A stretch of 64,000 bases of DNA from Ascidia mentula (lineage: Eukaryota > Chordata > Ascidiacea > Phlebobranchia > Ascidiidae), in contig OX387201.1 of assembly GCA_947561715.1 (NCBI GenBank), positions 4,358,001-4,422,000 of the forward strand, in the 5' to 3' direction. The position numbers and the translations under genes were made by a program. The notes below the pieces were generated by a model. That model ran no database searches. It was not told the DNA's origin and saw nothing but the letters and a program-made list of their open reading frames with translations. Positions 14,911 to 46,400 of the stretch are shown here, one piece after another (the stretch's first letter is position 1; each line of letters opens with the position of its first letter).

Positions 14911-17145
14911 TTAACTCGTTTCATCCTTGCTTGCCGCGGACTCATAGACAACATCTGAAACGGTTGCGATTTTCGAACTGATTGGTTGCAGGTAGCCGTC
15001 CACTTTCTGATGGGGAGTGTCCTTGGCAGCTAGGTAACCTGCGCAATGTATGTGTTGTACCCGTATTGAATATGATCATCATTAAATGAAAAACCATAGC
15101 CATATGTAGTATTTACCAGACGATATCGACGTTTTTGATTCAAGGAATACAACAATGCATTAAACGCACACTTAAATTGCTGTGAAAGTTAAATAAAATA
15201 TCACCTATATTTTCTATTTAAATAAGACACAGAGAATGCTTTTTCAAAAGCGAAATATATTTGTCGTTTATACCAAGACTAACTGGTGTTAGCCTGGAAA
15301 TTAATTTTACCGCGGTTGTAGGTATTCTATGGCACGATTATTTCATGTCTTACCGTTGCTTCCTGATAAAGGCACGTTCAGTCTTCTCAAATCAATTGTC
15401 TGGTACTCGTGCGAAGTACTACACGATGGACTCATATCCGAACAACCTTCCCTCTCGCAAACGTACAAGCGATTGGTCTCCGTTGGCAACCGTCGTAGTC
15501 TACTGCAGAAAAGTGGAAGTCCAGATAAAATGTTCAGAGGTACTGGAACTTGAGCATGGCTTAAGTTGAAAAATCCTGCTTTTTGCTGTTAGACCATAAT
15601 CACTATTGGCTTACAGCTTGGACATGATTTTCGTGAGACAGAGTCGATAACACCAGTGGTTCCCAAGCAGTTGCTTGGCCATAATGCCATCTACTCTGTT
15701 TCGTACTTGGTTTGGTAACTAAGGAATCGGCATCGTGAAATCGGTCGTTTAATTCACTTTAGCCATTATATAATGCTTACATTTTGTCGGATCGTTTGTG
15801 TCTAAGACGTAGCAAGACGGCGATTGCCACAAAGGCAAAAAACAGCAAAATTCCTGTGCAAATAAGTCCCACAAGCAATATATTGTTCAGCAGAAAATGT
15901 GCCGCTCTCCCTGATGCAGCCGCTGTTTGTGTTCTCCCTCTGCTGGTAAACTTTTCTGCAAATGTGATAAACCACAAATGTTATCGACAAGTTTTCAAAA
16001 CTGCGTTGATATTAGCATTTGACTTCGTAACATTTATATAGTAAAGTATATGGTACTGACGTTACCTTTCTCGGTGGACTGTGATGTAGTGGATATGCTG
16101 CTTGAGGGAACCGAGGACTTATGTGGTCTAACAGTCGTTGCATTGCTGTAACAGTTCAGTAAAACATCTGTCTGTTAGATCAGGGCTAAATGGTCGCAAC
16201 GGAGCAGCCAGATGTAATTAAGGGGATCGCGGAACATAGGCTATGTCAGGGCCAGGAGGGCAAATCATGTAATTAAAGTATTCGAAATACATCTTACAAA
16301 TCCAAACGCACATTTTCGTATACAGCCAAGGCTAATAGTATACAAAGCTATTTCCCAAATTAAAACTTTCGTCTGACTCACCCACATCTGCCTTTTGAAC
16401 AAGCGCGTCGCTGGATTTGGTAGCTTTTATTTTTAGATCCTTTACAGTCGACGGCTACCGTCGAGTTCTAAAAAAAGTTATTACAAATATATTAAAATCA
16501 ATTTCTTTGTATGACGAACGTAAATAGTGCCATTTGATCCAAGGGATCTGCATGATACGGTCATTAGTATAACTAGTACTTCACATGATTAGTATGGCTA
16601 GTACAAGCTGTCAAAGGGTATCCAAAATTTTAAAGCTTGGTTTGATACGAACAACTATTATTATAATGAATACTAAGGGTGTATAGTCACAGCAGTTAGT
16701 TTTGTATGCTTTCAAGATCACTTCTTTTGCTAAATACATCTTGTGCACTTAGTTTTAAATTATGACAGCAAAGAAACAACGAGTATAAACTCATAAATAC
16801 CAACGTACATCGTCGAACCACTGCAACTGCACCAACCTGTCTGTAGCACTGACGTGCACGAATCTGAGCGCACTTATTGCACGGCCCGTATGCTGACCAA
16901 CTTCCCCAAGAGAAAAAGCAAGTTTCGACGTGCAAGCAAGGTTCAACGACCATGCAGTGCTCACTGCCACATGTCCCCAACCTCGTCCTAGTCGCCGCCT
17001 CACAAACCAGCTTCGGAGGTGTCGGGTTGCAGGCACTCCACGGGTACCAAGAAGGGAATTCGCACGGGCAAGATCCAACGTTTGCCGCACATTGAACAAA
17101 TGCACCCAGAAACATTAAGAATAAACTGCATCGTTTCATTTTCAC
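14911..17145 (-). CDS. TSP1-repeat type I membrane receptor A with tyrosine tail
   Basis: Six exons (17145-16837, 16467-16382, 16145-16066, 15955-15781, 15502-15354, 15038-14911) give 308 residues with phases 0-2-1-2-1. Order: signal peptide (KRCSLFLMFLGAFVQCAA); a Cys-rich TSP1-like repeat (YPWSAC); a second repeat (WGSWSAYGPC) completed by exon 2 (DCKG...RRACSKGRC); a Ser/Thr stalk; a membrane helix (NILLVGLICTGILLFFAFVA); a basic stop-transfer; and the tail. Tail tyrosines lie in RLYVCE, HEYQTIDL, GYLAAK, GYLQPIS (YxxP) and VVYESA. TSP1 repeats bind proteins and glycans outside the cell; ligand unknown. A TAA directly after the helix exon would give a tailless form if its GTAAGC donor were ignored, but the paralogue phase supports splicing. 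Function is inferred. Confidence 0.85.
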
Positions 17146-18011
17146 TCCGGTGTGTATCGTTTGTTATCTAGCCTGCGGGACGTATCATGGACCTGGAAAG
17201 ATCAGCAATCATCACAGAAAATAAAATGGAAAGTTTCAGAATGGTGCCGATCAGAACCACTATTTTTTTTCTCATTCTTGTCTACAGGGCGTCTCTTCGC
17301 CTGTCACCTCAAAGTATCGTATATAAACGCTGTCTATGCTCACCTTGTCATGTGTATGCTACCTCTCAGTATTAGCCCTCTCCAAACCTTTTCTGCTCAA
17401 ATATTACAAGCCAACCATTCTCCTGCCGTGTTTCTCCTGTCGTTTAACATAGTGACAAATATACATCGAAAGTCGCCACATTTGTCATAGATTTGTTCGG
17501 GTGACGACCCAGGAAGTGTTGCATTTCTATCCACAAAAGGTTTTGCATTTCGCGATCGGCGCCAAGTTGGCCGCTGCAGGCCCACCTGACTTGGCGAAAT
17601 CAGATGAGTCACTTTCCAGAACCCTCATGTTACCCTCAAAAAAACTTTCCTGGAAATAGTGGCATGTGGTATAGCATTACACAAAGGGATCAACTTCCTT
17701 GTGCGTGGCACGAATTATTGCTTTCACTGTTTGCCGTTTCTGCCATAACAAAACGTTTCGTTGCAACCGACCGCTAAATATTGACCATTAATTACACCCA
17801 TATCTGAATCTTGTAAAAGTTTATTAAAGAGTAGACGTTACACCACCAACAAGACTTACAGTACAAGAACACTTCTGCGTATAGTACAGTAACGCATGGT
17901 ATAGTTTACAACGTGACGAGAAAATATAACGAAAACACACTTCTAACGAAAACGTCACACTTGAAAATGAAACTAATTCACTCGATACAACACTTGTGAA
18001 GTAGAAATTTA
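17146..18011. other. Spacer between receptor genes A and B
   Basis: It should contain the promoter of gene A (near 17146) and the 3' end of gene B. I looked on the minus strand for the sixth exon that genes A, D and E carry (GYLxP...VY pattern) and found none. A SINE fragment is present. Confidence 0.6.
17525..17605 (-). mobile_element. Fragment of the window's SINE family (3' part)
   Basis: Read on the minus strand, TCGCCAAGT..GG..CCTGC..GGCCAA..TTGGCG..GCGAAA..TGC aligns with the 3' part of the copy at 43885-44005. The fragment also contains a partial self-inverted CGCCAAGT/ACTTGGCG pair. No tRNA-like head is present. Confidence 0.4.
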
Positions 18012-18013
18012 TT
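18008..18013 (-). terminator. Polyadenylation signal overlapping the stop codon of gene B
   Basis: TAATAAA on the minus strand contains both the gene B stop (TAA, 18014-18012) and AATAAA. It supports gene B ending here rather than splicing on to a sixth exon. Confidence 0.5.
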
Positions 18014-19788
18014 ACCCATCCATGCTATAATCTTCTTCTTCCCCTTCATCAGATCTGTCGTACAGGGAGTTTTCGACCATTTCTGGCCCTTCGGATTTTC
18101 GTGAGGATTTTCTTGAGGCTTTTCTTGTGGAATTGCTGATAGTGCAGTACGGGCTGTGATCAGATTCCGCGGGTCCTACTACTGCGTATCCTGAGTTGTC
18201 GTGGGCGTTGGACTGGGGAACGTTCTCAAGAGCAACACACTCCACGTTGGAGTTACTGTGGACAAAATATAACGGATATTGTAGCTGATCTAGCTGTCGG
18301 TTTGTTATACAGAATCGGTCTTTAGAAATACAATTTATGAAACCATCCCACAGAACCCTTCGGGATCCGTAAACTCCACGTTGGAAACCACTGCTCTGAG
18401 CAATCGATACACCTGGTATACAAACTGTATACTTCACACAAAAGGCGGCTAGGTCGAAAATGTTTAACGAAATACCTTTATTGGATACACCAATCCATGC
18501 AAAAGCAGCGGAAATAATTCAGTAATTACCATTTACAGAGTAAAAGTCAAGCAGGTTTTTTTTGCAATAGTTTACCTAGATTTTCTGCGTCTCCTCGTTA
18601 TTAACCAAGTTACAACGATGAGAGCTGCACAAAGCAATACGGCCGAACCAAGGATGGCAATGAGAAGGGTGAGATCACGAGATGAAAACGTGTTTGATTC
18701 TCTTTGTCCGTTGGTCGATGTTGTGTTGGTGGTGCTAGTTTTGCTAGATGTTGACATTGTACCAACTGTAACAGTAATAATTTGCATATATTTTCGCAGC
18801 GATAGCCATTGACGTGGAATTTGATGAAAGCAATAATTATAAAGCCTTCAAGTATTTCCAGTTTGTAATGCAGTTACCACTGGGCGCGGAGAAAGGACCA
18901 AACGATGAAATGCTTGGGATCGTTTTCACAACAGTAGTAATTGTCGTAGAATAGATGGTCGTTAATGCAGTAAAAGTGGATGTTGACAGAGTCGATGGAA
19001 GAATTGCAGCGGTACTGGTTGTGAGTTGTACTGACGGGGGAGTTTTTCTGTAATAAACAGTCAATGATGAACATTTTGACGGAGGTTAAAACAAGGGTGA
19101 TACTGTAATGCAATACCGTACATGCAACGGCCTTTTGCACATGGCCGTTCGTTGACCTGGAATCCGTGTCCATTGTCCCCACTGCAACCCGTCGATTCGG
19201 TTAAATTTCCATTTATCTGTGCAACAAACGCAAGGGATGTGTTACACGGTTTAAAGCAAACGCAAAAAGTGTTTTACTTGGAGATCAATAACATAAGCCC
19301 CAGGCTTTCCGTTCAGGTGACTTATATTTCCACACTGCTAATCAAACCAAAAGATTTAACTTAAGTAAGAGACTTTGTCAATATGTCTGCTATATTTGTG
19401 CTTTAGCCCACAAGTTTGTGCTTAAAGTGATTCACATTCGAATATTATCGCATCAATAAATAAACTTACACACCTGACGAAAGCAGAAGCGTACTCGAGT
19501 ATGATGGCACCGTTCATTACACGAAAAGTATGTCGACCAAGAGCCCCAGTTAACAGTACAAGACGCCTCGTCCCTGCATGATGTTTCAGTAAAGCAAGAC
19601 TGGTTGTCACAGGTACCTAACCTTCTTTTTCTGGCGTTGTTGCAGAATCTCAAAGGTGGAGAAGCCACGCATTTTCCCCATGGGCCTAAGAAGGGCTGGG
19701 TGCATGTGCAGATGTTCGGCAATTGCCCTTGGTTGACACGCGCACAAAGTGCAATGAACAATATCCCTAGGAGTGTTTGGAAACTCAT
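18012..19788 (-). CDS. TSP1-repeat type I membrane receptor B with two ITIM-like motifs
   Basis: Five exons (19788-19474, 19216-19122, 19047-18878, 18765-18576, 18255-18012) give 337 residues with phases 0-2-1-2. Order: signal peptide (MSFQTLLGILFIALCARVNQ); two TSP1-like repeats (LGPWGKC; WGSWSTYFSC, closed by GCSGDNG...RPCAKGRC); a long Thr/Ser stalk over two exons; a membrane helix (LLIAILGSAVLLCAALIVV); RRRRKS; and a tail with SGYAVV and SPYCTI (both fit S/I/V/L-x-Y-x-x-I/V/L), ENSLYDRS and EEDYSMDG. The acidic C-terminus replaces the sixth exon of its paralogues. The stop codon overlaps an AATAAA signal. Exon 2 is 95 bases rather than the 86 of A, C and D. ITIM-type motifs, once phosphorylated, recruit SH2 phosphatases in vertebrates; the role here is inferred. 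Confidence 0.85.
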
Positions 19789-21985
19789 GTCAGGTCATCT
19801 ATACTTTAACTAGAAACAAAACAATAAAAAATGATGTGGAGAAAAGCGTAAATTCACGAGAATGGAGACGTTAATTTCCATGTCCAAATCGACTTGTTTA
19901 CGTAAGTTTATTTCGCTTACAAATACATCGTCAATGCCTTAAAGAGCACCGCAAAGGAGTGAGCAAATTTCCCAAGTAGCCTCATAGAAGGCAGAAATTA
20001 AGTGTTAGGAAATCGCATGTCGTGCCGCACAACACACGTATTAACCGTAAGGGGCGTCGTCAATTAAAAGTCAAATTTTCACGTCAATTCACGTAAAAAA
20101 ATCATTCATGATGATGTCATTCTATGTATGATGACTCTAACGTGTGCACAGGCGTTCGATGAATTATTGTTATACCGAAACAACTTGATTTACTACACAA
20201 TATTTACTAAAGTACTATGGTCGCCCGTCGTGGCCAGCTCCAAAGTTTTTTGGGGGCATCTTAAACGAAAATGATTTGGCTGATTTATCGTCTCGCGAAA
20301 CAGAGAACAACTGTGTTTGCTTTAAAGGCAAAATAAAATATTTATACATTAGTACATTTGAAACATCCTAAACTTTCGAATCTTTAACCCGCCACTTTTT
20401 GCTGGCCTTGCCAAAGTCGACAGCAGCAATAGATGATTTATTTGTGTCAAGTTCTTACGGAATTTGATAACTCAAAATAGTTTTTCAAGAAATTGCGTGA
20501 TCTATCAATTTTGAAACATTAAAGCTTTTACCACACGAGTCTCGAAACTTCAAATGCATCATTTTTACCGTATTGACTTCCAGTGAGCATCTAGACGACA
20601 AACCTAGTTTGTTGACAAATGCAATTGTGCTGTCGTACTTAGGTCCTAAAAGTAACGTTGAAACTATCCACCTTTTCTAAACAACTTCACAGTTAAAACG
20701 ATCCCCAAAGAAATTCTCTTGTTCATCGCTAAACCTAACAATGTGTCTGCCAAAAAAAATAAGGCCAGTTCACCAGAAAAGGGTGGCTTGTACGTCATCT
20801 CTTCTAAGTAAAAAGATTGGCAATCTACCGTATACAGAAAACATGCGTCAGTTTATTTCAGGAACACGCCTTACAGAGAACTTTCGTTTGCAAAAGATTA
20901 CTGAGCCACATGTAGAATGTTCCAACTTGGCAATTAACCGTAAGAAAAGGAATTTTTGAGTCATGCTGGCGTTTTTAATTTATTGGGTCTGTTTCGGGCA
21001 ATCTGACCACAGATCGATGCACAGCGCAATTGATTCCTTTCGATCCGATCTGCGCGTGAACGAAAGAAATTTTTAAACAAGCTTTTCCAAAACATTGTTT
21101 TTTGTACCATTATGCTCCCAAGAGTTTTTTTTTCTATTTTGTGAGTTAAAACTATTATAAACTGCTCTGTACTTTTGTGCTTTTTAAATGATCGAACCGA
21201 CGTTGGCATTGCGACAATCTCATGAAACTTTTCATAGTGAATTTTTAGTCATCCCCTGACTTAAACCCAAGAAATGACCGGTTTACCAGTAAATGTCGCA
21301 ACAAGGGTGAATTAAAAAAAATCATGCTTCATTATTTTCGGAATACAAAAGACTTGCGTACAAAAAACTTTTTTGAACTTTTACATCTGAATTACAAACT
21401 TGTCGGCTTAATTTCTTTGAACAAAGCGTTTTAAATAACTTTTAATATTGCCCTAAACTCTACTTTTGTTTGAAGTTTTATTTTGAAAGATTTGGGCAAC
21501 CCGTTTGCTTTTACCACAATTGCCGCAGTAACTATTCCATTCTGTCTTTGCCCACACAATAAAATGCAGTGCATCAATTTCACAAAATAAGATTTTACCG
21601 AGAAGTCAAGTCGAGTTCATTATAAACACCTACTTTTTTCCTCGCTAACTAATTAAGAGTTTCCTACAAATTTCTTGTGGTGAGTGTTGACACAGTGGTG
21701 CAGCTGATGTCAAATACTTTTCAAAAAATGCGGATGTTTTTGGGTTATCAAAATTATTGTGAAACATTTTACCATATTCTTACTTTTGACATTCTAATAC
21801 GTCAGCTATAAGTTCTGTGGCCTCACCATTAAACCAGCCCACTTATATTGTTGTCGAACGAGAGTTTTTTTTGTTTATTGACGTTTTTAACTTTTGACAA
21901 TTGACAGAAAACTACTTGCTTTTATCAGACAGACATCAATATTTAATTTAAGTTGTTAAGAACGATTTTATTGTGACTTTATCAT
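19789..21985. other. 2.2 kb spacer between genes B and C
   Basis: AT-rich. I found no TSP1, stalk or membrane exon on the minus strand and no supportable gene on the plus strand. Short frames at 20741-20959 (+) and 20961-21209 (-) lack any recognisable feature. Gene B's promoter must be at its left edge. Confidence 0.6.
21967..21972 (-). terminator. Polyadenylation signal of gene C
   Basis: AATAAA on the minus strand, 14 bases downstream of the gene C stop codon. It supports the tailless terminal exon. Confidence 0.6.
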
Positions 21986-23272
21986 TCAGCCCACGGAAAT
22001 TATCATGATGAACGCAAGTAAAAATTGAGGAAGGATCATGGAAGTTGGTCGGGAGGACGAGCTGGTGGAGGTGAACTTGACAGTTGGGTCTGTGAAGTTT
22101 TGAAACCCTGTTAATAACAGACACCGGTTTTTGTCATGTTTTAAGCAGTAACTCATTATTAACGCACATCACCCTGTTGCAAAACGTTACTTGACAATCG
22201 TTTAAAACCTAAAAAAAAACGAATCCTAGGAAGGTTTTCCTATCGACTGTACCTGAAGAAGTCTTGGAAGAAGAAGTGCTGTTAGGTGACTGTGTTGTGT
22301 AGGGCCTGCAGCAGTAAACAAATACTTTAATAATAGCAACAATCGACTTCAAACGTTCCAGAACGTGTTCGGTTTCGCGATGAGTAAATGAACGACGCAG
22401 TTAGCCTGCGGGTAGTGCGTACCTCGCTATGACGTCATGCTATACAGGCGTCATTTTGGGCAAGAACTATGCACCTCCAACTACCTATGTTTGGACAAAA
22501 ATACAAATACTAAAATGAAACAAAATCATTTTTTTCTGTTTCCATTATTTGCACTTGACTTTAGGTGCGCTGGATAAGTAGAAATGACATTTTTTCACTT
22601 GTTTTCAGGCATTGGGTAAAAAAGGGCAATGTGACAATTCACCGTTCTGCTTGCAATCAAGCTGTGATAATTTTCGGAATCAAAGCGCAAGAGCAATATT
22701 GGGTGACAAATGAAGATTAGCCGGTTTAAGAAACTTATTAAAAAAATAAATTGTAACTCTTACATGCAACTATCAGCCGGACAGGGTTGAACCTCAATCT
22801 GTTGCCCCGGTTCGGTCTCTCCTTTGCAACCGACAGCTTGGCTGAAATTCTGTCGAGTACAATTACTGGTAGTTAATGGATTGCTACAGAAATGGTTCAG
22901 TACTAAATATAGACGCTTCCATGCGCTACGAGTACATGACAAGGTTAACTAGAAATGATTTCTGACCTTTCCGATGCAAAAACGAAGTCTCAGTTGAAAG
23001 CATTGCGCACCGCACTTTCCGTACTGTGACCAAGAGGCCCAGGTCAACACACAAGACGCCTCGTCCTTGCACTTTTCCTCCACTGTACAGGACACGTTTC
23101 CGCAAACCGCTGTTCCGATCCTCGTGGCGTTTTCACAGACCTGCAATGGCGGTTGTGCGGCACAAGCTCTCCACTGCTCCGTCGACGGGTTTGCGCACGT
23201 GCAGTTGCCCTGCGAACTCACGAGGTGGGCTGACGCACAAATGCACAACAAAACAAAAATTTGAAATTTCAT
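21986..23272 (-). CDS. TSP1-repeat protein C, predicted GPI-anchored, no cytoplasmic tail
   Basis: Four exons (23272-22967, 22849-22764, 22305-22253, 22089-21986) give 182 residues with phases 0-2-1. Order: signal peptide (MKFQIFVLLCICASAHLVSS); two TSP1-like repeats (second WASWSQYGKC, closed by VGCKGETEPG...QPCPADSC); a short Ser/Thr stalk; then a Ser-rich segment and a C-terminal hydrophobic run (MILPQFLLAFIMIISVG) directly before TGA. There is no basic stop-transfer and nothing after the hydrophobic run, which is the layout of a GPI-attachment signal. AATAAA follows 14 bases after the stop, so the gene truly ends. The acceptor of exon 2 (CGACAG) was chosen because it alone gives phase 0 and the 86-base length shared with A and D. 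A short secreted or membrane form is the alternative. Confidence 0.8.
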
Positions 23273-24243
23273 TTTTGTGTTGAAGACACTGCAATGCAAA
23301 CAAGCGTATAGTAGATTCGGCTTTAGCTGTAGCCAGGGCATAGAAACAACTTTCAAAGAGTGCAAATAAAAAAGAACAAACAAAACAAGTTGAATGTCAT
23401 ATAATGCACGTAGAATACATTTTTCAATGATAACTGTCAAAGAGAAAAACGTAATAACGAGTTTTAATTCGAATGTATTTTCAAAGTTCGTCAAGCAATA
23501 TACTTGACGAACATATGTTTTAATAATCGCAATTTTTATTCCTAAATGTCATACTTGTACTACCTTTCATTGCTAGCTGAAATCACTACTGTTGAAAACC
23601 AAACGCACCCAAGCTACTATGTCACCTCTTTCGCCCAAGTGGTTTTACAGGAAACGTTACCTATACTTACATCAGTCGCGTTTCTCTAATTTTTTCTAGC
23701 CAAGTTGGCGGAGTTCGTTATTTCGAGTCTGGCAAACATCACAATTGTATTACTGGGAAAATATACACGGAGAAGAAGTGTGGCCTTATATAGAGTCTTT
23801 TTTAGGAAAAAATGCTTGCTGTACCATGTGGAATTGGTGTAGTTATAAGGTAGCAAATTGATAAGAGCTATACTTTCATGCTTTTCTTCAATAAATCAAT
23901 TTGTAAAGATACTCTATACTGAATTTTTTTTACAACTGGATATCATATCATAGCTTTTTTCGTAAATTATACGTGAAAACAAAACGTTGCAACTCTTAAA
24001 CAACATTTTATTTCTTAGACAACATTTTATTTCTTAAACAAAATTTTATGGTTTTGGCTTTCAGCGGATGACGTAGGTGCTACAGGTATTTTGTTACAGT
24101 GAAAAAACATCGTCATACAGTATTTTGCTCATTACATGAAGTAGTAGAAAACAGTGGAAGTACAGTGGAAAATGATTCAAGTGCAGTTACGGAAACAGTT
24201 TTGCACGTGCAATGAAGGAAACAGTTTAAACACAGGCTACATC
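23273..24243. other. Spacer between genes C and D
   Basis: AT-rich. It contains gene C's upstream region and gene D's 3' end. An in-frame stretch continues upstream of the chosen gene C start, but the hydrophobic leader begins at MKFQIF, so the downstream ATG is preferred. No other gene seen. Confidence 0.6.
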
Positions 24244-27134
24244 TCATTCTACATCGCCAGCATTGGCAGGACGTGCCGGCTGTGCGTACACACTTTCCTC
24301 GGCATTTGGTGGAGAGATCGGACGCAAGTAGCCGTCGCTGTTGGTGGGCATCTCCACCCTCCCTGTGGATAATAAAGCGTAAAAGTTTAAGTGAAATTAA
24401 ACCGTTTAACACAAAGGTAACAATATGTAGCCACCTGTCTTTGAGAGCAAACACAATACATATATATAACTGACCTACAGTTTATAGAAATCATTTAGCA
24501 TATTTGCACTGCTGAACTTGAACAAAACGACATTTTCGAATCAACAACCTCACCATTTTGGCCGAAGCTGTTTTGGTTTTCCAGGTGCGTCATCTCGTAC
24601 AAACGGTTTTCAACCATTCTGCCGCCACCTGATTGGTTGTTAGGTGCGGACCGGTTGGGGGTGGAGGGCGGACTGCGCTGAGGGGGTCCTACAACTTCGT
24701 AGGTCGTGTTCGCGACCGAAAGTGGCAAAGGCCGTTGCGTCAAAAGCAAACTCCCATCGCTAAGACAATAATTTATTCAATGTCAACATTGTGAATGGTT
24801 CAAACGTTGGAATTTTTGGCTTAGGAAAGCCAGTTTCCCAATCAATATAGTATTAAGTCACAGGTTTATGATCGAGGATCGTGGAAAAAGGTGGCTTACA
24901 TTGTTTCACACTTTACCTGAGTAAGTATGATCCACGCATAACGCATGATCCAGCAAATAAGCAAATAAAACATGTAGAAAACGATAAATCATACATTTTC
25001 GATCGTGAAAACATGTCACCCTTACCTCGATTTCTTTCGCTTGCGTAGTATCATGTACGCAACTGCAACGATAGCTATAGAGAGCATGAAAGCTGCACCC
25101 AGAATCGCGATCAAAAGAATGATATCACTGGAAAGTGCGGCCGCAGGAGGGAGCAAGGGAGGTGCGCTGGTGTTTTCGGTTTGGTTTCGAGAAGCTGATG
25201 TTCCGTTGGATGCTGTAAGTGCGGTAAACATTACATAGAGCAGTTGACAGACACAGGAATAGTTGAACAGATGCAGTGGTCACTTCAAAAATTGTATGAA
25301 AATATTGGATGTTATTTTTTTGTTTGGTATATTATTTTTTTCGCCTGTCAATGAAGTTATTTCATGTTCAATTGTACAATGCGTGACACAGCCTTTTTTA
25401 ATTTTTAATTTATCACAACATAGAGTGAAACTATCCTTTCGCGGGCAAGTTAGGATGAGTAAAGACAGCTGAACTATATAGTCATGTTTTCACTTAGACG
25501 TAAAATAAAGGATAGCAATCCATCCCTTCACTGGCACAGTGGTGCCTCTTAAATATCCAACAACGTTATGACGTTTCTGGGAAGCTAGGAGCTCGACAAG
25601 CGTCGAAACCCGCAATACGAAAAGGCAAACAAATGCACGCTTTGGGCAAAACATAGCGAAACGGACTTTGGATGCCTAAATGCAGATAGGGCTCACAACA
25701 CGACCTTGTCTAGACCGACGTAAGAAATCAATCGAGCGTGCTTAGGTTAGTTGAATATTTCTTCGAACTGCATGTGCTGATGTTGCAATGGTAATTAATA
25801 ACACATAGCCTCAGTATTGGCATCGGCAATTTTTGGCAGATGCCAATCTGTACTTTCTGTGAAATTTACTCGCGAAACGTTATAACACGTACTTGGGGAT
25901 TTGTTTATTGTCTAAACAATATGTATGTAGGCTGGTTCTCAATATCGATAACAGTGACAGTTTTATCATATTTCGGCAAAAACGCCGTTTTAATGATAAA
26001 AGCATTATCTTTTGTCGAAACGTCTATAATAAAAATATACATTGTGGTCCAGCTTTTTCATTTTACTAACATGTTTTTGATTTTGGAGCCATTTAGCACC
26101 TTATACGCACTTGTAGTAAATCAGAACCAGGGTCAAACCTCTCTTATATACCTGTCGCAAATCGGTTGCATCCCAAACACCTAAAGACCAAATTTATCGC
26201 AATCCACAAAGTTTATCGCCCACTTGTACGAATTAGTTACCATTGGTGGGGCTTGGAATTGGCACGGCTGTTGGAAACGTGCTAGTGGGTGTTAGTTGCT
26301 GTGAGGTGCTGATCACACTGGTTGACTTTGAAGGTTCAGAGTTTGTTGGAGTTGTTGTCCTGGCGGTGGTTGTGCGAAGCACGGAGGAAGTTGTTCTGAA
26401 TACAAGTTTTAATTAACGCATGCTATCATTCTCGTTACGTTTTCCAAAAGTTTAAGCCTTATTTAGATTCCATTACAAAAGGTTGCTTAAGATTAACAAA
26501 CCACAATCCCTCTCAATATTAAATTTGTGTTTACTTTACGCGAAAAAATTCCAGCGATAGGTTTATATACTCTTTGTAGCCTACACGTCCGATGTTAAGA
26601 ATATATTCTGTGTATTTAAATTTATGCAAAACACTCATCTATTATACATACATGCAGGCGCCTCCGACGCACGTCTGTGATTCATGCTGGATTGAAGTTC
26701 CGATGGCACCCGCGCATCTATCACCCGTTGTTGTACTCTGTGAAGGTGATGGAGATTATAAATCTGCGCTTAAAGTGCAACCAAAAGAAAAAGCCAACAC
26801 CGACCTGTCGCAAACAGACCCGAATCCTCCGTGTAGTGCATCTGTTATCGCAAGACCCGAACGCCGACCACCCCGTCCACGAATAGGTGCAAGAGTCCGC
26901 ATGCAGGCATTTTTCCAGTACATAACACTGGTCTGCTACCCCACAAGATCCCAGCCTCACTCTTGTGGCGTTTTCGCACACAAAATTAGGCAGCCGTGAG
27001 GTGCAAGTCCCAGCATTTCCCAAAATGGGTGCGGGGCATGTACAAGGTAAGGTAGACGACTGCTGGGTTACCCCCAGGTGGACGTAGGTGCTCAATAGCA
27101 AGAGTACAAAAAATCTTGTTTCCTTTAATGTCAT
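24244..27134 (-). CDS. TSP1-repeat type I membrane receptor D with ITSM-like and YxxP motifs
   Basis: Six exons (27134-26805, 26737-26652, 26395-26241, 25212-25026, 24759-24554, 24362-24244) give 360 residues with phases 0-2-1-2-1. Order: signal peptide (TRFFVLLLLSTYVHLGVTQQ); two TSP1-like repeats (second WTGWSAFGSC, closed by RCAGAIG...TCVGGAC); a long Thr/Ser/Pro stalk; a membrane helix (IILLIAILGAAFMLSIAIVA); KRKKS; and a proline-rich tail. Tail motifs: TTYEVVGPP (fits TxYxxV, the ITSM pattern), ENRLYEMT, GYLRPIS and SVYAQP (both YxxP, preferred by Crk-type SH2 domains), and PPSTPNRS (minimal SH3-type proline motif). ENRLY and GPP are shared with paralogues B and E. Signalling roles are inferred from motif patterns only. 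Confidence 0.85.
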
Positions 27135-27731
27135 GACACAATCATTTGTGGATTACACAACACCTACTTTTGGTGAACCTGAAAATTAAAAACAAATATC
27201 ACTGCGCGTTTAAACAAACGAGTTGAAACTAATTGCTTGTAGAATATGGTGAAAAAACACAAACCAACACAAAAAACAGTATTTTGAGACGCAACAAAAC
27301 TTTTAAATGATTACAAGTGGAAAAAACTAACAACAAACAACGAACTAAATTCCGTGATATTTGCACAAAGAAACTCTGCCGTAACAAAACGCATGTGTTT
27401 CAGCCGATGGAGTATTATGTATTCAAGAAACCACAAAAGAAGTATAACAGACAGAAAAGCAATATCCTACAGTACTGTGTGAGGAACATGTTGGTGCTTC
27501 TCTATTTTAAGCGTCACGAATATTACAAAGCAAACAACTGTAACAACATTTTCATTTCAAAAAAGCCTTCAAAAAGTGGTTTTTACTGCATCCTTTCCTT
27601 GTCAAAAAATGTCCATTCATTATCGCAGTGCTGTGAAAAATGTTTGTATCTATACATGCGTAAAGACAGCAAATTCTTTCTATTCGCAATGACAAAAACT
27701 CCTCAGTTGATCTCAAAGCTAAACACTTCCG
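27135..27731. other. Spacer between genes D and E
   Basis: It holds the D promoter and E 3' end. A 156-codon plus-strand frame (27317-27787) covers much of it but has low-complexity Lys/Asn/Tyr content and overlaps exon 6 of gene E antisense; I do not accept it as a gene. Confidence 0.6.
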
Positions 27732-30700
27732 TCAGACCCTTGAACCACCATTGCGCTCCAGGGACAAGTAAACGCTCTCTGGGATGACGGGCGGCCCCGA
27801 GTTGAACGGCTGCAAATATCCGTTTCCGTTCGTGTGGAAGTCTGAAGCTACTTGATACCCTGAAGAAAGATGTTGGTAAAAATGCAACAATTGTGAGCAA
27901 GTAGAAAGGCACGAAACACCGAAGTACATAATGTTAATCCGGTTTTTAAAGCATTGATAATGATGTTTCAATAATGGATAAGACAGAGTGCAACAAGTCA
28001 AGTGAAATTGACAATAACAAGCAAAAAAGTTTGCGAAAGTATGTATCTACCTAGCAATCAGACCAAATGTTTGCGAACAAACAAAGCAGGAAATCAGATA
28101 ACATCCGCCTTGAAATCCGCAGGTTTATATAAAAATCGTGAAGCAAAATACGGCGCATACCTGAGTCATATTCTTCCTCCACAACCGGTCGGTCCACGTT
28201 TTTCGGGTCGATCGTCTCGTAAAGGGAGTTGTCCACTAGTTCCTTGTTATGCAACAAGGAGGGCCGGTCGGGTAAAGGAGGTCCAGCTTCTTCGTAATTC
28301 CCACTTTCCCGGTAGTACATCCGATCAGCGCTGGTTGGAAGTCGACGTCCAGCAGGAGCACTGGAATCATTTAATGTAACGGTTTTTGTATCTGTCTAAC
28401 GAATTTGAAAAAACGTTTCGATTTTTTTGCAACAATAATATGGAGAGTAATGTATTTTATTGAAGTATATACAGTTTGTGTAAGGTTTGTTTGTGGCTAA
28501 ACAAATCAGTATACCCATTGTAGCAAAACCCTGATATCAAAATTTAAGTGCAGGGACATAGACGAAATGATGATATAGCTGCTCACTTTGTGTCGTTGTG
28601 ACGTTTCCGTCTCCTCGTAATTACAACTGCAATCACCACAATGGCGATGCAGAGTAGAAGGACTGATCCAAGAATAGCAGCAAGCAGTGTGTAATCCAAC
28701 GGCTGTTGGACAGAATCCGTTTTACCGATGACATTCGTGGATGTCGATGAAGATGATGATAAGGTTGTTGGTGATGTTGGAGGAAACTTGGATGTAATTC
28801 CGACTGCAGAAACAATATTGTCACGTTAAAGAAAATAATGTTTAGTTTTTTTTGCGACCACAACGCATTGTCGCGTCGGTTTGATGAAAAAAAGCTTGGA
28901 ACCATCTAGTGGACGGTTATTTTTTAAAGCCCCAGTTGCCGTTGGAAATAAACGGTGATAACGGAACGCCATTGATTCAACACAAGTCCAAGCAATCCTT
29001 CATAGTTCATAGGTTGTCTAGTGAGGAGTGTTTCCAGTGTTTGACGTTGTGTAAATAAAATGTTATTGCCACAATGAAAAGATTCAATAGGTAAGATTGC
29101 CACAATGGTAAGATTGCCTTTTTTGTAAAAAAAAACTTTCAAATTGTTGAATATTTTTTGCAAACTAGATTTTCAGAAGACCACATAAAAAAGCACTTCC
29201 ATTTTCGGGTCGGGTGTACATTGGTATAAGACAAGATGTACAAACCAATGAAACCCAATAAATATATTTATGATACGAGTTACAGGAAAAAGCGAAAGCA
29301 CGCGGCTTAAAATGGATCGTCTGATACCACGAACGCTCGGGTCTCCGAACACATCAGCCGTGACTCCCATCATGTTGTGTGACTAAAAGTAAGTGCCAGA
29401 TTTCGACAAATGCGTTACGAACGCGTGGCGCAGAGCAGTCATGTAACGTAAGCAAAACTTCTTGGAAGTCTAAAAATGGCCTCGTTTGCTGCATTATCGC
29501 GGCTCTGTCGCAAGTCTGTCCGGGCGCCCACGAAGGGAATTTTTAAGACTTCACATTTGGACATCGAGATGTAATTATCGTGTAAAGCGTGCTGCACGAT
29601 TTGCATTTCCGCTGGTAGTTTGTTTGCTGACTCCCTAATAAAACCTTCGAGTTGGCTACAGCGGTTTAATTTATTTTTGAATGATGGTCAGGATATTTAT
29701 AATGATTGGGTGTTTATCACGAGAACATGCCTATCTGATTTGTTAGGCCTACCTAATGTTTACGACATCTTGTTTTAATTTGAGAAATGCAAACAAAATC
29801 ATTATTGGTTAACCTTCGATTTTTCAACATACATGTTGCTATGTTATTCCAAAATGTATATAAAATAACAAAATATCGTCATCCAACCTTTGCTAGACGT
29901 GATGGTCGCTTTTGATGAGGTTGTCTGGGTTGTGGTTGGCGTGGTTGGCGTGGTTGTGGTGAACTGTGGCGACCTCGTCCTTATTCTTGTCGGAATCGGG
30001 GTGCTGTAATGCATATGTGACGCGGATTAATCTTAATAGACCGTAGAAAACAGCTGATAAAAACTAGTGTAATAATGTACATGCGCAACGTACGTCGTAA
30101 GCCTGCATCCAATCTTGTTGACGCAGATGTCGTTTCGGGTTTGTACGTTTGCTCCGAACGCCCCAGCGCACGACGTTGATTGAAAGGGAGGGTCTGATCC
30201 AATCTGCGTGAAAATAAAATGTAACATAAATAACGTGCACTTCAAAAAAAAATGACACATTTTACATGTCCATGTGCATTTGATCGATTCTGAGATTTTA
30301 CGACCTGGTAAAACGTGGGTCTTAAAGTGTTAAAATAATCACGCGGTCATCTCATTACAACATATAAGTTGTAGGAATTCAAGCATATTACGCAAATACA
30401 CTTTCAAGGCAGTCTCCTTTTTCCGAGTACAAAAACATTTTGTGATACGAAAATTAAGTTACTTTCTTGTTAACAGAAAAAAAACAGTCCACCGATATTC
30501 TCCACCCACCAGGTAACAATTTCTAGCCGCCGGTTGTACCCCAGTACCGCACTGGGTGTTACAAGGTCCGTTCGGTGCCCAAGTTGTCCAGAGGCCCGCG
30601 CAGCTCAAAGAGTGCGTGCATGTCTCTGGCTTGAAACAACTGACCGGGTGTGCACCCAGGTAGCACTGCTGATATCGTTTGGCTTTGTCGCAAGTTTGGC

Positions 30701-30845
30701 CCTGGCTAGGGATAGATCCGCATTCACTCCACTTACTCCAAGTACCGAACTGACAGCAAAACGTCTGCTGAGCTTCTACTGTGCATGCGATGGCAAACGC
30801 CAGATACAACAGTGAGAGTGCTTTCAAGTGTTCCATGTTGTTCAA
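27732..30845 (-). CDS. TSP1-repeat type I membrane receptor E with two ITIM-like motifs
   Basis: Six exons (30845-30510, 30203-30094, 30003-29888, 28803-28587, 28360-28161, 27859-27732) give 368 residues with phases 0-2-1-2-1. A second ATG at 30836 is also possible. Order: signal peptide (LKALSLLYLAFAIACTVEA); two TSP1 repeats, the most canonical in the array (FGTWSKWSEC; LWTTWAPNGPCNTQCGTG); a mucin-like Thr/Pro stalk with tandem TTPTT units; a Ser-rich segment; a membrane helix (LLAAILGSVLLLCIAIVVIA); RRRKR; and the tail. Tail motifs: NYEEAGPP, NSLYETI and ESVYLSL (both fit the ITIM pattern), GYLQPF (YxxP), EEEYDSG and GYQVAS. It shows the fullest set of signalling motifs in the array. Ligand unknown; an inhibitory immune-type role is inference. 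Confidence 0.87.
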
Positions 30846-40476: not shown

Positions 40477-43400
40477 TCACAAACCGAGTGATTGAATTTG
40501 TTCGAGAATAATTCGACAGTGCTGCGGCGAAGTGATGCCGGCGTCTTGCAAGTCGTTCTCCGTCATGTCGCTGATGGAAAAGAAATAAAGCGTGAACGTG
40601 AAGTGGGGATATCGCCAGATACGGAGATAACACACGTGGTTTGTGGAATGAATGCAGCCGCCGACGACGGCGCTTGGTTGGGTTGTGCTGTCACGTGTTT
40701 GGCCAGGCAACAAATATTAGACTTTGGAAACTCACAGATCTTGTCATGTGCGCTAAATGCGATCATGTTGTCGGTTTGTGCAAGCCACTGTACGGATGAT
40801 TGTGTAACAGCGTATGTTATGGTGGATTTCTGCAGACGTCGGGCTGGTGTTCCAATGCTTTGTGTCGTTGCTTTATTATGCTTCGTGGCTTGCTTAGTCA
40901 ACCATTTTATTATTGACTTTAGTTCGAAGGTCCAGTGCAACGAATATATAGAAACAGTCAAATATATTTGGAACAGAAGTTATTTTATTTCATTTTTGTA
41001 CCTCATTACCCTAGATGTATTTTTACTGTTCTACGCATGCACATTACACAGCACATACGCAAACACACAGGACTAATTTTAGAACAAAAATATTTATAAT
41101 TCCTGAAACAAGGAAGGACAACGGTGGTCAACGCTGCCCTAGCAGACGCTCGACCCAAGCGCGGCCCAAATTTACCTCAAAAACTCGATGCTATCCCATC
41201 CATTCTCATGAAGCAGTGGTGCATAATATTCAAGCTTAAGATCGGCCAGAAACTCGTTCACAGTCGTCGGGGTTTTTGAACCTGTTCGAAATTGTAATTT
41301 ATTGACAGTGACAAGAATAACGTCAATTCACTGCCGGGTTCTATTGGTAAGCGAAGTTATTTTACGTCACGGTACACACCTCCGCCAACAGGTTGATTTC
41401 GACCTTGGGCCATTGGAGGAGCAGCGCTCGTTGCCGGGTACGCCTACGTTAAAACGGTATGTTAGTATGTTAGGTAGGCGTCGTGTATTTCGAGGAACCA
41501 TAGGCTTGGTTTAGTTACAAAAAACACCGGCTTAAACAAAAAACACCGGTAATTTACAATTCACCTTCCTGTTGTTAGGAGTTTCGTACGAGCCTACGGA
41601 GGGAGTGGATGACGTATTCGCCTGAAATGTTGGTACACATTTGTTGAAAACACAAAAACAACGTGATTCACCGAGTCACCGTCGCCGTGACATTTACTGA
41701 TCGAGGTCGTTTGCACCTGTTATACGAAAGCCGCAGAAATACCGATTGCCGTGTGCAATTTAAGACGTCAATACACAACTGAAACATTGACTAATCGGAG
41801 CCTGAACTTACGTATAATGGCACCATAAGTGACGTCATCAAAGGAGCAATAAAATCCCCTAATACTTATGCGCTTACATAGAGAACAAATTAAACGCCAA
41901 TTTCCCATAGATTCTGTGTACATAATTCACAAAAACTGTATCACTCGATTTAAATCCCCCGAGCGACACCAACCGATCGTACCCAGTTCGCGACTTCGGC
42001 GAATTCCGCGAGCGCGTCATCAAGCAAGGACGCGTGTTGCGATATAGATCGGGAGGCGGTTTGCGGTGATTGTTGTTGCTGGGTCGACGGTTGCCTGGCA
42101 ACCTGGTTTGCCTTTGGAGGTTGAAGGTTGGGTGCATGTGCTGTAGCAAAATGTTTGGATGGTGATTGAGTGACTTTCGTCCTTACTGGTACGTAACACA
42201 CCAACACAGCAACTATTTTCTATGTGATAAATTGTAGGACCTTATAGGGCATATTATTGGCAGCTTTCCTCTGTCAAAGATTAGCGACTTTAATACAAAG
42301 CTATATCACCCAATAACTGTTCTCACTTAGGCTTTTTCAAAGAATTTTGGTAGGAAACATGAAAAGTTACCTTGTGCTCTTGGTGTCGGAGGGAGGGGAT
42401 CGTCTTTGGGGATTGGTGAGGGTTGTTTTCTACGCGCGGCCACAACAGGGGAGGTTTTTGCTGGACTGTGGATTGGAGGGTGTGTGAAAAAGGGTTGTTA
42501 AAGTAAGTCAATACTACAATGTTTTGTGTCTATGTGGGCTCAAACTATACATGGATTTGTTTGATGCTAATATGCGGTGTACTGCAATAGCTGGAATAAA
42601 ACACGAAACACATTTGTTGTCGCAGAGGAAAACGCTGATTGGTCTCAAGTACAGAATGACACTTTTTAAATCATCAAATATCGCCCACCCACCCCCATAA
42701 AAACAGATAAACTGTAAAGAGGTGGAAATTAATTTTTCACAATTTTGCGCCGGTTTTTGACGTAAACGAACATCAAACCTGGGGGACTGTCGTCCTTGTA
42801 TGGGGAAAGTGGGCGAGAGAGGGGGAATCTGCGACGGGAGTTTCGGACTCAGCTGCTCCGGATCGGCGTATTCGCCTTCTGCAGCTAAAAACAACCGCGA
42901 ATTGAAATTTGAAATAAAACCAGTATTTCGACTGAGTCCGGGGACGCACCTGCAGGGGTTTCCCCGTAAACCGCGACCTCGGGCGAATACATTGATTTGG
43001 TCTCGGGAGATCTGCGAAAAGCGCATGTTTCAAAAAACCGAACAAAATGATTCTGTATAGCTGAAATAGTGTTAGCTCACTAAGGCAACAATGCAGCCTG
43101 TATGGTTCTTACTATTGTTGTGCATTTTAAAAAGCTGCAACCGTATGCCAACCAAGCGACACTTCTTGAAACGATTCATCTCAAAGTAAATGACGGATTA
43201 GATTAGCTTACTTTTCACGGGGTCTGAAGTTCGGTTTTGGGTTGAATTTGGCGGCTGCCGTTTCACTCAAATCGCTGTACATTGGAGCTTCAGCAATCTA
43301 CACAAACGAATGCACTAAGATATTATGCAGGCCTACCTGGTTATAAAAAAATAAAGTTGTAGCTGTTGGGATCTAGACTTACAAAAAAAATGGTTAGTTT

Positions 43401-46400
43401 AAAGACATTACGAGCATTTTCTCTGGTCTAGGTGCGAGTGGCGACAATATTCACACAATATAGAAAAAAAAAATTCACCATATGCGACTTCATTCCGTCA
43501 TCGTCTTTGATTCCACCGAACTGGATAAAGTCGTAAGTCTTCTCTTTTACGCTCTGCGACTCACCCCTGAGGAAACAATAGAGTGAAAACCACGAACCCG
43601 GGTTTTCTCCGTCTTTCACAAACCTCGCTTTCACCAACATCCTGCCGCGTATCTGCCCCGTTTCGTCACCTTTGCGCGTGAGTCGCTCCTCGAATTTTTG
43701 TGGGTCGGTGCCGATCATGGAACGCAGGGCGAGCACGCATTCGGCTGAAAAGTACGTTACTGTTATCGAACTTTTTCACAACGCTTTTGTTGTCGCGTTA
43801 CACGGGAATCAAAATCAAACCACCAATGTGGATGTGATCAAAATATTCAATATTACCCAAAGAAATCGTAACTGCTACAATCAAATGGCCTGATCTAGCT
43901 TGGCTGCAATGCCTGTAAACTTAATGATTTCGATGCCTGTGGTCGCCAAGTGAGGACCTGCGCAGTGGGCCAATTCTGCCAATCATGCGAAACATTGCTG
44001 CGTTGCAGATGATTCCACTTTGTAAACTTTGTACTTACCGTGTATTTCATTATCGTCCTCCGATCTTACGGACACGAGTATGTGTTGGTCGACGAGATAC
44101 TCGCGGTCGGCGATGATTGGCTTAAGCAGCGGCACGTGATCTTTGCTCCAACCCAATCGCACGTAGTTCGGCCCGAGGTCACTCGTGTCCAAACGGGTGT
44201 TGCGCTTACTGCGCACATATTCTGCGCAGTAAAAAGGTTAATATGCCATTTGGAGGATGCCGTATCGTTGTAGAACCGTAGATAAGCCTCGCACAATCTC
44301 TACATCAGGTTTTTATAATGTGTGGGCGGATCACCAAACTGTTTGCCCACGTGCAATATGAGTCACCAATGGCAATTACCCAGCAACAAAATCGTAACAC
44401 AGACAACCGGTTATTCTTACTTATGAGGCAGACGGAGTGGAATTGCAGATAAAAGGAACTCTTTCCTGGAGCTTTCAAAATAACTTCCACGTTTTCGAAG
44501 CTGACCGAAGATGAGCTCGCAGCGTTGTCCAAGTCGTGTGAGATACCTGGTTGATTGAATAGAAACGAAGAGTTTTGGTATGGGTGAGTTTACAAACGGG
44601 TGATGAATAGGTAATGAACAGGTGATGAACAAGCCGTAACGTACGCCCTATATGAGGAAAGAAAACTATGAAAAGTGGTTCTAAATCAAAGCAACATTTC
44701 CTTCAAGGTTTTTTTTTGAAACTCTTTTAATTTCCTCCATTCACGTTACGTAAGCACGAACACTAGAAACGCGGCAGAAATTGCCATTCAAATGAAACAA
44801 AGATTCAAAAATCCCTAAATCACAGATCCTATTTTCACCATTCCACACACAAAAAACATAACACAATCGCATCAAAACATCACTACACACCCCCACTGCA
44901 CATCACCTGCGTCCGAAACGTATTGTCCCCTGACGCCGACCTGGAAGTTAGAAAAGACTGGAGAGTGGTCGCTGGTCATGATGTCGTCGGAACAACCGTA
45001 CGAGAGACACTGAGAGTGGGTTTCGGGATAGGAGCGCCACAAAACGCGGTCGCACCACGACGGTACGTTGATGCGGACTCCTGTTTTCTTTACTTTTAAA
45101 TGGGAGTACGTCTCCCTGGTTCCTCGCTCGTAACGGTAAGTGGGTGGGAATCCGATTTCTTCCTCGTCTGGAGAAATATACACAGGGTTTTAAGAGTTTG
45201 ACACCCGGCAGTGAATACGTTTCCAAAAGTCATTGTTAGGTACCAGACCATATGTTCTCAAAGTGTGGCGAAGGCACTAAGAGCTTGGTCTGTGGTGCGG
45301 TGATGAGGTTTTTGACGTAACGCACCAATGTCTTGGCATGTCCATCTCGGTCATAACGTTTTATTTTAGACTTGCCGGTAACATATAATACAGTTGCGGG
45401 TAAAAAGCAATTGATTCTGGTTGGGCCGGGTATATTTTTCAAGGAAAAGGTGTGACCTGCGTGTAACTACCACTGACACATGGACACAAAGAAAAAAAGC
45501 GGAAGTGACGTAGTAAAACCATCTCACCAAAGCCAGAGAAAACTTTCGACGAATCCTTCTCACGACGAAGTTGGTCGACTTTGGACAATGTCCCGTAATC
45601 TCCGCGCCTCAGGTAGGCGAGAATCTCCTGCACGTCCATCTCCAACCTGAAACAAGATAAGTCCCGTAGGTCTGGATATGATGAACTCCAATCTGGAGTT
45701 ATATACATGGAAAGACAAATTTGGGCAACTACGGCAACATCAGTAATAACATATATAGTAAGGTAGCCTGGGTTTAACTGGAGGCAACCGAAAAATGCTG
45801 AATTGGGGATGTTCCTTTCCCTATTGTTAGTCTACCGACACCTCAACTGAAAGCACGGCTGGCTTCCGCATCAGGCCAAATTCATCGTACACGTCATGTA
45901 TTGTATCTCAGGCACCCAAAGCTATTTATAATCACCTGTAGTTTAGGTCACCAAGAAAGTAAAGATGATCGAAACGGTTTGACAAGTCGAAGTCACGGAA
46001 GCGGTCCTCGCCCAAGTTAAGAGATCGCATTATGTCGTAATAATTGTTGTTACGCCTGCGGAAATGCAACGCGTCATTACTCAAAGGCTAATACACGCAT
46101 ACGCACCCTAAAATAGACCGCACCACACGCACCTAATGCACTTTTCAGCCCCGGACGTGAGGTGGGCGTTTATGAAGCAAAACGAGGTGCCGCCGAACTG
46201 GAACGAAGCTCCCACTGCTCCCTTATTGCCGAGTGCGTTGGCGATGCCTGGAAATATAGACATGTATTAATTAACAAGGAAATGCAAACAACTAAAAACA
46301 GGATTTTGCCGAAAGCGTGCGAGCATAAATGCAAATATATATAGGCCTATGAGCCATAGAAAGCCAAAACGCCAAACAGAACCGTTCGATACTACTGAGT

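What the first reader, a model, noticed from the sequence alone, without database searches (positions are those of the whole stretch)
14911..30845. Five-gene tandem array of single-pass TSP1-repeat receptors with signalling tails
Five minus-strand paralogues share signal peptide, two TSP1-like repeats (the second split by a phase-0 intron), Ser/Thr stalk and exon phases 0-2-1-2-1, but differ strongly in ectodomain sequence, stalk length and tail. Short ectodomain, mucin-like stalk, one helix and phosphotyrosine-type motifs together resemble innate immune or self-recognition receptors. I know of no named family with this exact architecture.
Basis: partly seen in the sequence, partly recalled or inferred. 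Interest (0 to 1): 0.9.

Follow-up and report, generated by a model that had tools for sequence, protein, structure and literature searches.

The report
Tunicate thrombospondin-repeat receptor gene cluster
In a sea-squirt genome, five neighbouring genes encode old, strongly diverged cell-surface proteins with a thrombospondin-type ectodomain; four appear to have a membrane helix and tyrosine-rich tails and one looks lipid-anchored without a tail, a layout that resembles vertebrate paired immune receptors but is built on a different domain.

Summary
Five minus-strand genes (14911-30836) can be modelled with 22 GT-AG introns. Only the second TSP1 repeat is demonstrated (profile against thrombospondin-1 structures, E=8e-9); the first is unproven. 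The family is old (exon-1 identity 25-43%); exon-1 searches of the 196 Mb genome found no other clear member, though they barely detect g1. The host is a tunicate (plastin 74% identical to Phallusia mammillata). No credible homologue was found in the protein database. In the four tails tyrosines are the best-conserved residue type: NxLY occurs in 4 of 4 (in g5 at a different place), GYLxP in 3 of 4, and five ITIM/ITSM-like motifs against about one expected. A SHIP-like gene begins about 10 kb from g1, and two Syk-type kinases are in the genome. Best reading: a cluster of phosphotyrosine-signalling receptors with one GPI-type member, working like CEACAM or Botryllus FcoR arrays but belonging to neither. 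Signalling and immune role are inferred, not shown.

The parts
27732..30836 (-). g1, 365 aa, six exons: 30836-30510, 30203-30094, 30003-29888, 28803-28587, 28360-28161 (acceptor uncertain), 27859-27732; TM segment and 118-aa tail with NSLYETI, SVYLSL and GYLQP
   Evidence: splice models; hydropathy 3.35 and motifs
24244..27134 (-). g2, 360 aa, six exons: 27134-26805, 26737-26652, 26395-26241, 25212-25026, 24759-24554, 24362-24244; TM segment and 114-aa tail with TTYEVV (ITSM-like), NRLYE, GYLRP, YAQP
21986..23272 (-). g3, 188 aa, four exons: 23272-22967, 22849-22764, 22305-22253, 22107-21986; no tail
21986..22107 (-). g3 terminal exon: Ser-rich segment, then MILPQFLLAFIMIISVG and stop; GPI-signal-like, at the rank and entry phase of the TM exon of the others
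   Evidence: model, hydropathy 1.95; similarity to the four TM exons only z 1.1-2.9; no TM or tail exon match in the gap behind it at E<=0.05
18012..19788 (-). g4, 337 aa, five exons: 19788-19474, 19216-19122, 19047-18878, 18765-18576, 18255-18012; TM segment and 87-aa tail with SGYAVV, SPYCTI, NSLYD
14911..17139 (-). g5, 306 aa, six exons: 17139-16837, 16467-16382, 16145-16066, 15955-15781, 15502-15354, 15038-14911; TM segment and 99-aa tail with NRLYV (near the membrane), EYQTI, GYLQP
41200..54859 (-). Neighbour, not part of the array: SHIP/INPPL1-like gene on the same strand (first part of an SH2 domain at 54734-54859, SHIP first C2 domain, inositol 5-phosphatase, sub-threshold SAM near 41200); limits approximate
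   Evidence: Pfam on typed pieces; SH2 family hit over positions 1-42 of 77, E=1.7e-12, one TGA counted at its end

Best explanation
A tunicate cluster of five type-I cell-surface proteins that works like a paired-receptor system. A short cysteine-rich ectodomain ending in a TSP1 repeat, held away from the membrane by a mucin-like Ser/Thr stalk, binds a glycan or protein ligand. In g1, g2, g4 and g5 ligand binding leads to phosphorylation of tail tyrosines (NxLY, GYLxP and ITIM/ITSM-like sites) by Src- or Syk-type kinases, which recruits SH2 proteins such as the SHIP-type phosphatase; tails differ, so that g1 and g4 (two ITIM-like motifs each) would be mainly inhibitory, g2 switch-type, g5 core-motif. 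g3 kept the ectodomain and has no tail, acting as a GPI-linked decoy or co-receptor. Shown: splice-consistent gene models, TSP1 relation of repeat 2, Ser/Thr stalks, hydrophobic segments, tail motif content, presence of a SHIP-like and two Syk-type genes. Inferred: transcription as modelled, membrane topology, GPI linkage, phosphorylation, ligand, sign of signalling, and immune-cell expression.
For: Gene models with consistent phases; repeat 2 matches thrombospondin-1 structures at E=8.2e-9 and a profile of TSP1 repeats from the same genome at E=7e-8, probability 94.6%; four strong hydrophobic segments, mean 2.95-3.35; five ITIM/ITSM-like motifs against 0.91 expected, 12 of 5000 shuffles, 9 of 5000 with tyrosines held fixed; NxLY in 4 of 4 tails, 0 of 5000 shuffles, and GYLxP in 3 of 4, 0 of 5000; columns holding tyrosine conserved in 4 of 7 cases against 20 of 242 for other residues, p=0.002; SHIP-like gene nearby with the first part of an SH2 domain and two kinases of the Syk layout elsewhere; a GPI-type member beside tailed members, as in the CEA family (passages of PMC2832619).
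Against: No transcript, expression, polymorphism or ligand data. ITIM alone is weaker (58 of 5000), and the strict ITIM form (982 of 5000), core Yxx[ILV] (493 of 5000), YxxP (512 of 5000) and ITSM alone (408 of 5000) are not enriched. NxLY was picked after seeing the tails; some three-residue pattern shared by four shuffled tails occurs in 226 of 5000; and in g5 the NxLY lies near the membrane and does not align with that of the other three. Tails share ancestry, so motifs are not independent. No ITAM was found. YxxPhi and NxxY are also endocytosis signals. Ectodomains are old and diverged, unlike the extracellularly very similar paired receptors of the CEA family (passages). SHIP proximity may be coincidence.
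Confidence: 0.42

Rival explanations
1. Endocytic or scavenger receptors: YxxPhi and NxxY motifs bind AP-2 and PTB adaptors, and the TSP1 ectodomain takes up a soluble or particulate ligand; g3 is a GPI-linked form.
For: NxxY motifs 6 observed against 1.63 expected, 18 of 5000 shuffles; Yxx followed by L, I or V in 4 of 4 tails.
Against: Yxx[LIVMF] is not enriched (872 of 5000); GYLxP and the ITIM/ITSM context are not needed for endocytosis (recalled).
Confidence: 0.2
2. Adhesion or extracellular-matrix receptors of the THSD1 or UNC5 kind, acting in tunic, epithelium or vessel attachment, with tyrosine tails linked to focal-adhesion kinases.
For: UNC5B TSP1 repeats are among the profile hits (E=7e-5); THSD1 is a single-span protein with a TSP1 repeat (passages of PMC12189160); GYLxP would fit a Crk-type YxxP site (recalled).
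Against: A short ectodomain on a mucin-like stalk, tandem divergence and a GPI-type member are unusual for such receptors (judgement); no ZU5, death or Ig domain at E<=1 in the proteins as given (g1 without its tail).
Confidence: 0.2
3. Gamete or self-recognition proteins (fertilisation, self-sterility or allorecognition).
For: Ascidian sperm carry other TSP1-repeat proteins, the astacin-like Tasts, with a suggested role in fertilisation (abstract starts of PMC11673157 and PMC6353882); tunicates have polymorphic recognition loci (section 11 of PMC12065747); divergent tandem paralogues with a GPI-type member fit.
Against: No polymorphism or gonad data; the Botryllus receptors use Ig and sushi domains; synonymous divergence is saturated, so no selection test was possible.
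Confidence: 0.12
4. Not exclusive of the others: g1 is decaying or wrongly joined, so the working cluster has four genes.
For: g1 exon 5 has no in-frame splice at its first acceptor, and no AATAAA or ATTAAA lies between g1 and g2.
Against: The remaining junctions are open and in phase, tail motifs are present in g1, and a downstream CAG acceptor keeps the frame.
Confidence: 0.1

Closest known systems
Mammalian CEACAM (CEA) family
   Same: Members with ITIM/ITSM tails beside GPI-anchored members; GPI signals are thought to have arisen from altered TM exons (passages of PMC2832619); here g3's GPI-type exon sits at the rank and entry phase of the TM exon
   Different: CEACAMs have Ig domains; here a TSP1-type ectodomain and mucin-like stalk; no Ig match; no ITAM member found
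Botryllus fester co-receptors (FcoR)
   Same: Tunicate type-I TM multigene family whose tails can hold ITIM, hemITAM or core Yxx[ILV] motifs (section 11 of PMC12065747)
   Different: FcoR are 520-610 aa with V-type Ig, sushi and two C2 Ig domains and pair with fester genes; none of these domains found here
THSD1 (Tmtsp)
   Different: In the passages seen it is one gene, not a tandem cluster, with no GPI form mentioned
Cnidarian TSR-only proteins
   Same: TSP1-repeat proteins proposed as pattern-recognition molecules; one TM TSR-only protein is mentioned (passages of PMC5446238)
   Different: The majority lack TM domains; no tyrosine tails or stalks mentioned in the passages seen
UNC5 netrin receptors
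   Same: TM receptors with TSP1 repeats; UNC5B is matched by the repeat-2 profile
   Different: Ig, ZU5 and death domains (recalled); none detected here

Membership tests
TSP1/TSR superfamily | WxxW, six cysteines in TSR spacing, sequence relation to TSR | tested here: met
   Repeat 2: WxxW and six Cys in 5 of 5; E=8.2e-9 to thrombospondin-1 structures
TSP1/TSR superfamily | Pfam TSP1 model above curated cut-off | tested here: not met
   Best E among the 5 members 0.0034 to TSP1_CFP_C, 18.2 bits against cut-off 27
TSP1/TSR superfamily | First repeat is also a TSR | tested here: inconclusive
   F-spondin E=0.072; hhalign E=0.0015, probability 16% against genomic TSRs; 1.6% against repeat 2; one of 5 members to TSP1_spondin at 0.74; AlphaFold mean pLDDT 43
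ITIM/ITSM-bearing receptors | Tail motif [ILVS]xYxx[ILV] or TxYxx[VI] | tested here: met
   Four ITIM-like (g1, g4) and one ITSM-like (g2); none in g5; strict [LV] form not enriched
ITIM/ITSM-bearing receptors | Phosphorylation and recruitment of SHP or SHIP | not testable with these tools
   needs biochemistry
ITAM receptors | YxxL/I x6-12 YxxL/I | tested here: not met
   none in 4 of 4 tails
CEACAM family | Ig-type N domain | tested here: not met
   no Ig match at E<=1 in five proteins, g1 given without its tail
CEACAM family | Mixture of TM-ITIM and GPI-anchored members | tested here: inconclusive
   ITIM-like tails and one GPI-like C terminus by sequence only
Botryllus FcoR | V-Ig, sushi, two C2-Ig domains | tested here: not met
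   no such match at E<=1
GPI-anchored proteins (g3) | Small-residue site, spacer, C-terminal hydrophobic segment, no cytoplasmic residues | tested here: inconclusive
   pattern present by eye, hydropathy 1.95; no predictor available
UNC5 | ZU5 and death domains in the tail | tested here: not met
   no match at E<=1 in g2, g4, g5; g1 tail not scanned

The most novel reading that the evidence does not exclude
An independently evolved paired-receptor system of tunicates in which a TSP1-repeat ectodomain, not Ig, C-type lectin or sushi, is coupled to inhibitory, switch and core tyrosine tails plus a GPI-linked decoy, near the gene of its own SHIP-type effector.
Probability: 0.3. Interest if true: 0.75.

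Novelty: new variant of a known kind. Interest (0 to 1): 0.5.

Why it matters
If the signalling reading is right, it would show that the layout of vertebrate and Botryllus tyrosine-motif receptor arrays (related ectodomains, alternative tails, GPI form) was reached in another tunicate with a different recognition domain. It gives a compact five-gene locus in which ligand, tail function and polymorphism can be tested directly. The most likely disappointment is that these are adhesion or uptake receptors.

Tried and rejected
Protein database searches: g2 alone gave no hit at E<=1e-3 among 5038 candidates; the five-protein profile gave one hit among the 8000 candidates scored, a 506-aa protein rich in Ser and Gln at 17% identity over 10% of the query, rejected as composition. 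The control (a plastin model from the same window, lacking its N-terminal start) returned tunicate and vertebrate plastins with Phallusia first (120 best of 4926 listed), so tunicate proteins are in the database; but the search needs shared five-residue words and stalk composition may crowd out candidates, so absence of homologues is weak evidence.

More family members elsewhere: exon-1 searches with each of the five members listed, outside the array, only weak matches at E of 0.006 or worse (at E<=1; at E<=0.1). Their reach is limited: the g2 search sees g1 only at 0.126 and the g4 search not at all, and the g1 search cannot be told from general TSP1 matches, so another g1-like gene could be missed. 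Tail searches with g2 and g1 exon 5 at E<=5 found only themselves, not even the sister tails, so they exclude nothing. The genome-wide Pfam TSP_1 search scored 150 of 1616 candidates and listed none in the window.

Exon searches within the window: the output was cut, so I saw only part of the protein-to-DNA matches; the gap searches were shown in full and gave no convincing extra or relic exon. Recent duplication or gene conversion: one 45-bp nucleotide match (87%) between g4 and g3 exon 1, dS undefined in 7 of 10 pairs and about 2 in 3, so rejected; a dN/dS test was not meaningful. Structure of exon 1: mean pLDDT 43, not used for a fold search. g2 alone against solved structures: one composition hit at E=0.64. 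Rfam and tRNA scans of the window: no hits. The C2 locus L035 is a different multi-TSP1 gene.
Full report
What is there. The reverse strand of 14911-30836 holds five genes in head-to-tail order. I built spliced models from the sequence: g1 30836-27732 (365 aa), g2 27134-24244 (360 aa), g3 23272-21986 (188 aa), g4 19788-18012 (337 aa), g5 17139-14911 (306 aa). The 22 modelled introns begin with GT and end with AG. Phases after successive exons are 0-2-1-2-1 in g1, g2 and g5, 0-2-1-2 in g4 and 0-2-1 in g3. g1 required two choices: an exon 2 longer by nine bases so that it ends at GTACGT, and an exon-5 acceptor 35 bases downstream of the first AG; with the first AG the frame is lost. g1 is therefore the least certain model. 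No transcript data were available.

Ectodomain. Exon 1 carries a leader, a cysteine-rich block and the first half of a TSP1 repeat; exon 2 completes that repeat. The repeat-2 profile of all five matches thrombospondin-1 structures at E=8.2e-9 and UNC5B at 7e-5, and a profile of eight TSP1 repeats from another locus of the same genome at E=7e-8, probability 94.6%; WxxW and six cysteines are present in 5 of 5. Single sequences stay below Pfam cut-offs. The cysteine-rich block before it has a similar pattern but only F-spondin at E=0.072, hhalign E=0.0015 with 16% probability against the genomic repeats, no similarity to repeat 2 and no useful AlphaFold model (mean pLDDT 43). I call it a possible degenerate repeat.

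Stalk, membrane, tails. The stalks are 41-85 residues with 38-54% Ser+Thr. g1, g2, g4 and g5 have one strong hydrophobic segment (2.95-3.35) followed by basic residues and 87-118 residues of tail; g3 ends with a weaker segment (1.95) at the very C terminus after a Ser-rich stretch, the pattern of a GPI signal. The g3 terminal exon has the rank and entry phase of the TM exon of the others, but its sequence similarity to them is slight (z 1.1-2.9). No TM or tail exon match was found in the gap behind it.

Tail motifs. The four tails contain 21 tyrosines. NxLY occurs in 4 of 4 (0 of 5000 shuffles), GYLxP in 3 of 4 (0 of 5000), and ITIM/ITSM-like motifs total five against 0.91 expected (12 of 5000): SLYETI and SVYLSL in g1, TTYEVV in g2, SGYAVV and SPYCTI in g4, none in g5. 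With tyrosines held in place the total is still unusual (9 of 5000) and so is NxxY (18 of 5000), but ITIM alone is weaker (58 of 5000), and the strict ITIM form (982), ITSM alone (408), core Yxx[ILV] (493) and YxxP (512 of 5000) are not enriched. The NxLY pattern was picked after seeing the tails; the global control gives 226 of 5000. In g1, g2 and g4 the NxLY sites align; in g5 the motif lies near the membrane and does not align with them. Columns containing tyrosine are shared by at least three sequences in 4 of 7 cases against 20 of 242 for other residues (p=0.002). Because the tails are related by descent, this shows selective retention of tyrosines rather than independent gain.

Age and spread. 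Exon-1 identities are 25-43%, exon-3 stalks do not align better than shuffles (z from -1.1 to 1.1), and synonymous divergence is undefined in 7 of 10 pairs and about 2 in 3. Exon-1 searches with each of the five members over the 195.8 Mb genome return array members and otherwise weak matches at E of 0.006 or worse. As far as these searches can see, this is an old, small, single-locus family; a member as diverged as g1 could be missed.

Host and neighbours. The gene below the array is a plastin; its 611-residue model (14 exons, N-terminal start not included) is 74% identical to Phallusia mammillata fimbrin, 63% to a Clavelina and 61% to a Ciona savignyi protein, so the genome is a tunicate, probably a relative of Phallusia. 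Above the array lie a small lectin-like secreted gene (36.8-38.7 kb; only a sub-threshold Pfam hit), a SHIP/INPPL1-like gene on the same strand (SHIP C2 domain E=7e-10, phosphatase E=3e-51, SAM below cut-off; the first part of an SH2 domain, positions 1-42 of 77, E=1.7e-12) and a glutaredoxin exon. The near end of the SHIP-like gene lies about 10 kb from g1 and its SH2 exon about 24 kb. Elsewhere in the genome two open frames have two SH2 domains and a tyrosine kinase, the Syk/ZAP-70 layout. Machinery that could read such tails is therefore encoded; the closeness of the SHIP gene is suggestive only.

Homologues and literature. The g2 protein and the five-protein profile found no credible homologue in the database of 5.8 billion proteins; the plastin control shows that tunicate proteins are held, but the word-based search could miss diverged orthologues. 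Ten literature searches listed no title or abstract start that describes TSP1 receptors with immunoreceptor tails; the lists (20 of 50; 15 of 45; 8 of 13; 10 of 31) were capped. ITIM + ascidian + thrombospondin gave zero papers. Only open-access papers are held. The sperm-surface Tast proteins of ascidians are TSP1-repeat metalloproteases (abstract starts), which keeps the gamete reading open.

Comparison. It works most like two known systems. In the CEA family, members with ITIM/ITSM tails and GPI-anchored members occur together, and the GPI signals are thought to have arisen from altered TM exons (passages, PMC2832619). In Botryllus, fester co-receptors are type-I TM proteins with ITIM, hemITAM or core tyrosine motifs (section 11 of PMC12065747). 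It is a member of neither: Ig and sushi domains were not found. Single-span proteins with a TSP1 repeat exist (THSD1, passages of PMC12189160) and cnidarians have TSR-only proteins proposed as recognition molecules (passages of PMC5446238), but a TSP1 paralogue array with stalk, diverse tyrosine tails and a GPI-type member was not seen in the searches named above.

Verdict. Real, correctly located, partly misdescribed; a new variant of a known kind. The receptor architecture is well supported by sequence for four members, phosphotyrosine signalling is plausible but untested, GPI linkage of g3 is probable, and the immune role is a hypothesis. On checking against the calls I lowered the best explanation from 0.45 to 0.42 (g5's NxLY does not align) and raised the gamete rival from 0.10 to 0.12 (the Tast proteins).

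Noticed in passing
window 41200-54859, minus: SHIP/INPPL1-like gene (first part of an SH2 domain, C2, inositol 5-phosphatase, sub-threshold SAM) on the same strand as the array and upstream of it.
   Followed up: partly
window 36841-38674, plus: Small secreted protein with C-type-lectin-like cysteines and motifs; Pfam gives only a sub-threshold lectin-like hit.
   Followed up: partly
window 8870-13365, plus: Plastin/fimbrin gene, 14 exons modelled without the N-terminal start, 74% identical to Phallusia mammillata.
   Followed up: yes
window 56346-56630, plus: Exon matching glutaredoxin.
   Followed up: partly
window 39935-40015: Tandem repeat of about five 16-bp units, 93% matches.
   Followed up: no
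G000 contig C71, 8.77-9.75 Mb: Many TSP1 repeats in long open frames, up to 2131 residues in the listing; apparently a large expansion of TSP1-array genes.
   Followed up: no
L035 (G000:C2:15768000-15777999), minus: Gene with several similar TSP1 exons about 1 kb apart followed by a hydrophobic, possibly transmembrane exon; a different TSP1 membrane protein.
   Followed up: partly
L032 and L033 (G000:C67 7.964-7.981 Mb): Two Syk/ZAP-70-type kinases (two SH2 domains plus kinase) in uninterrupted open frames of 646 and 605 residues, about 12 kb apart.
   Followed up: partly
L034 (G000:C72:9216500-9226200), minus: Open frame of 2924 residues in the stretch (3597 in the search listing) made of TSP1 repeats of several types.
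   Followed up: partly
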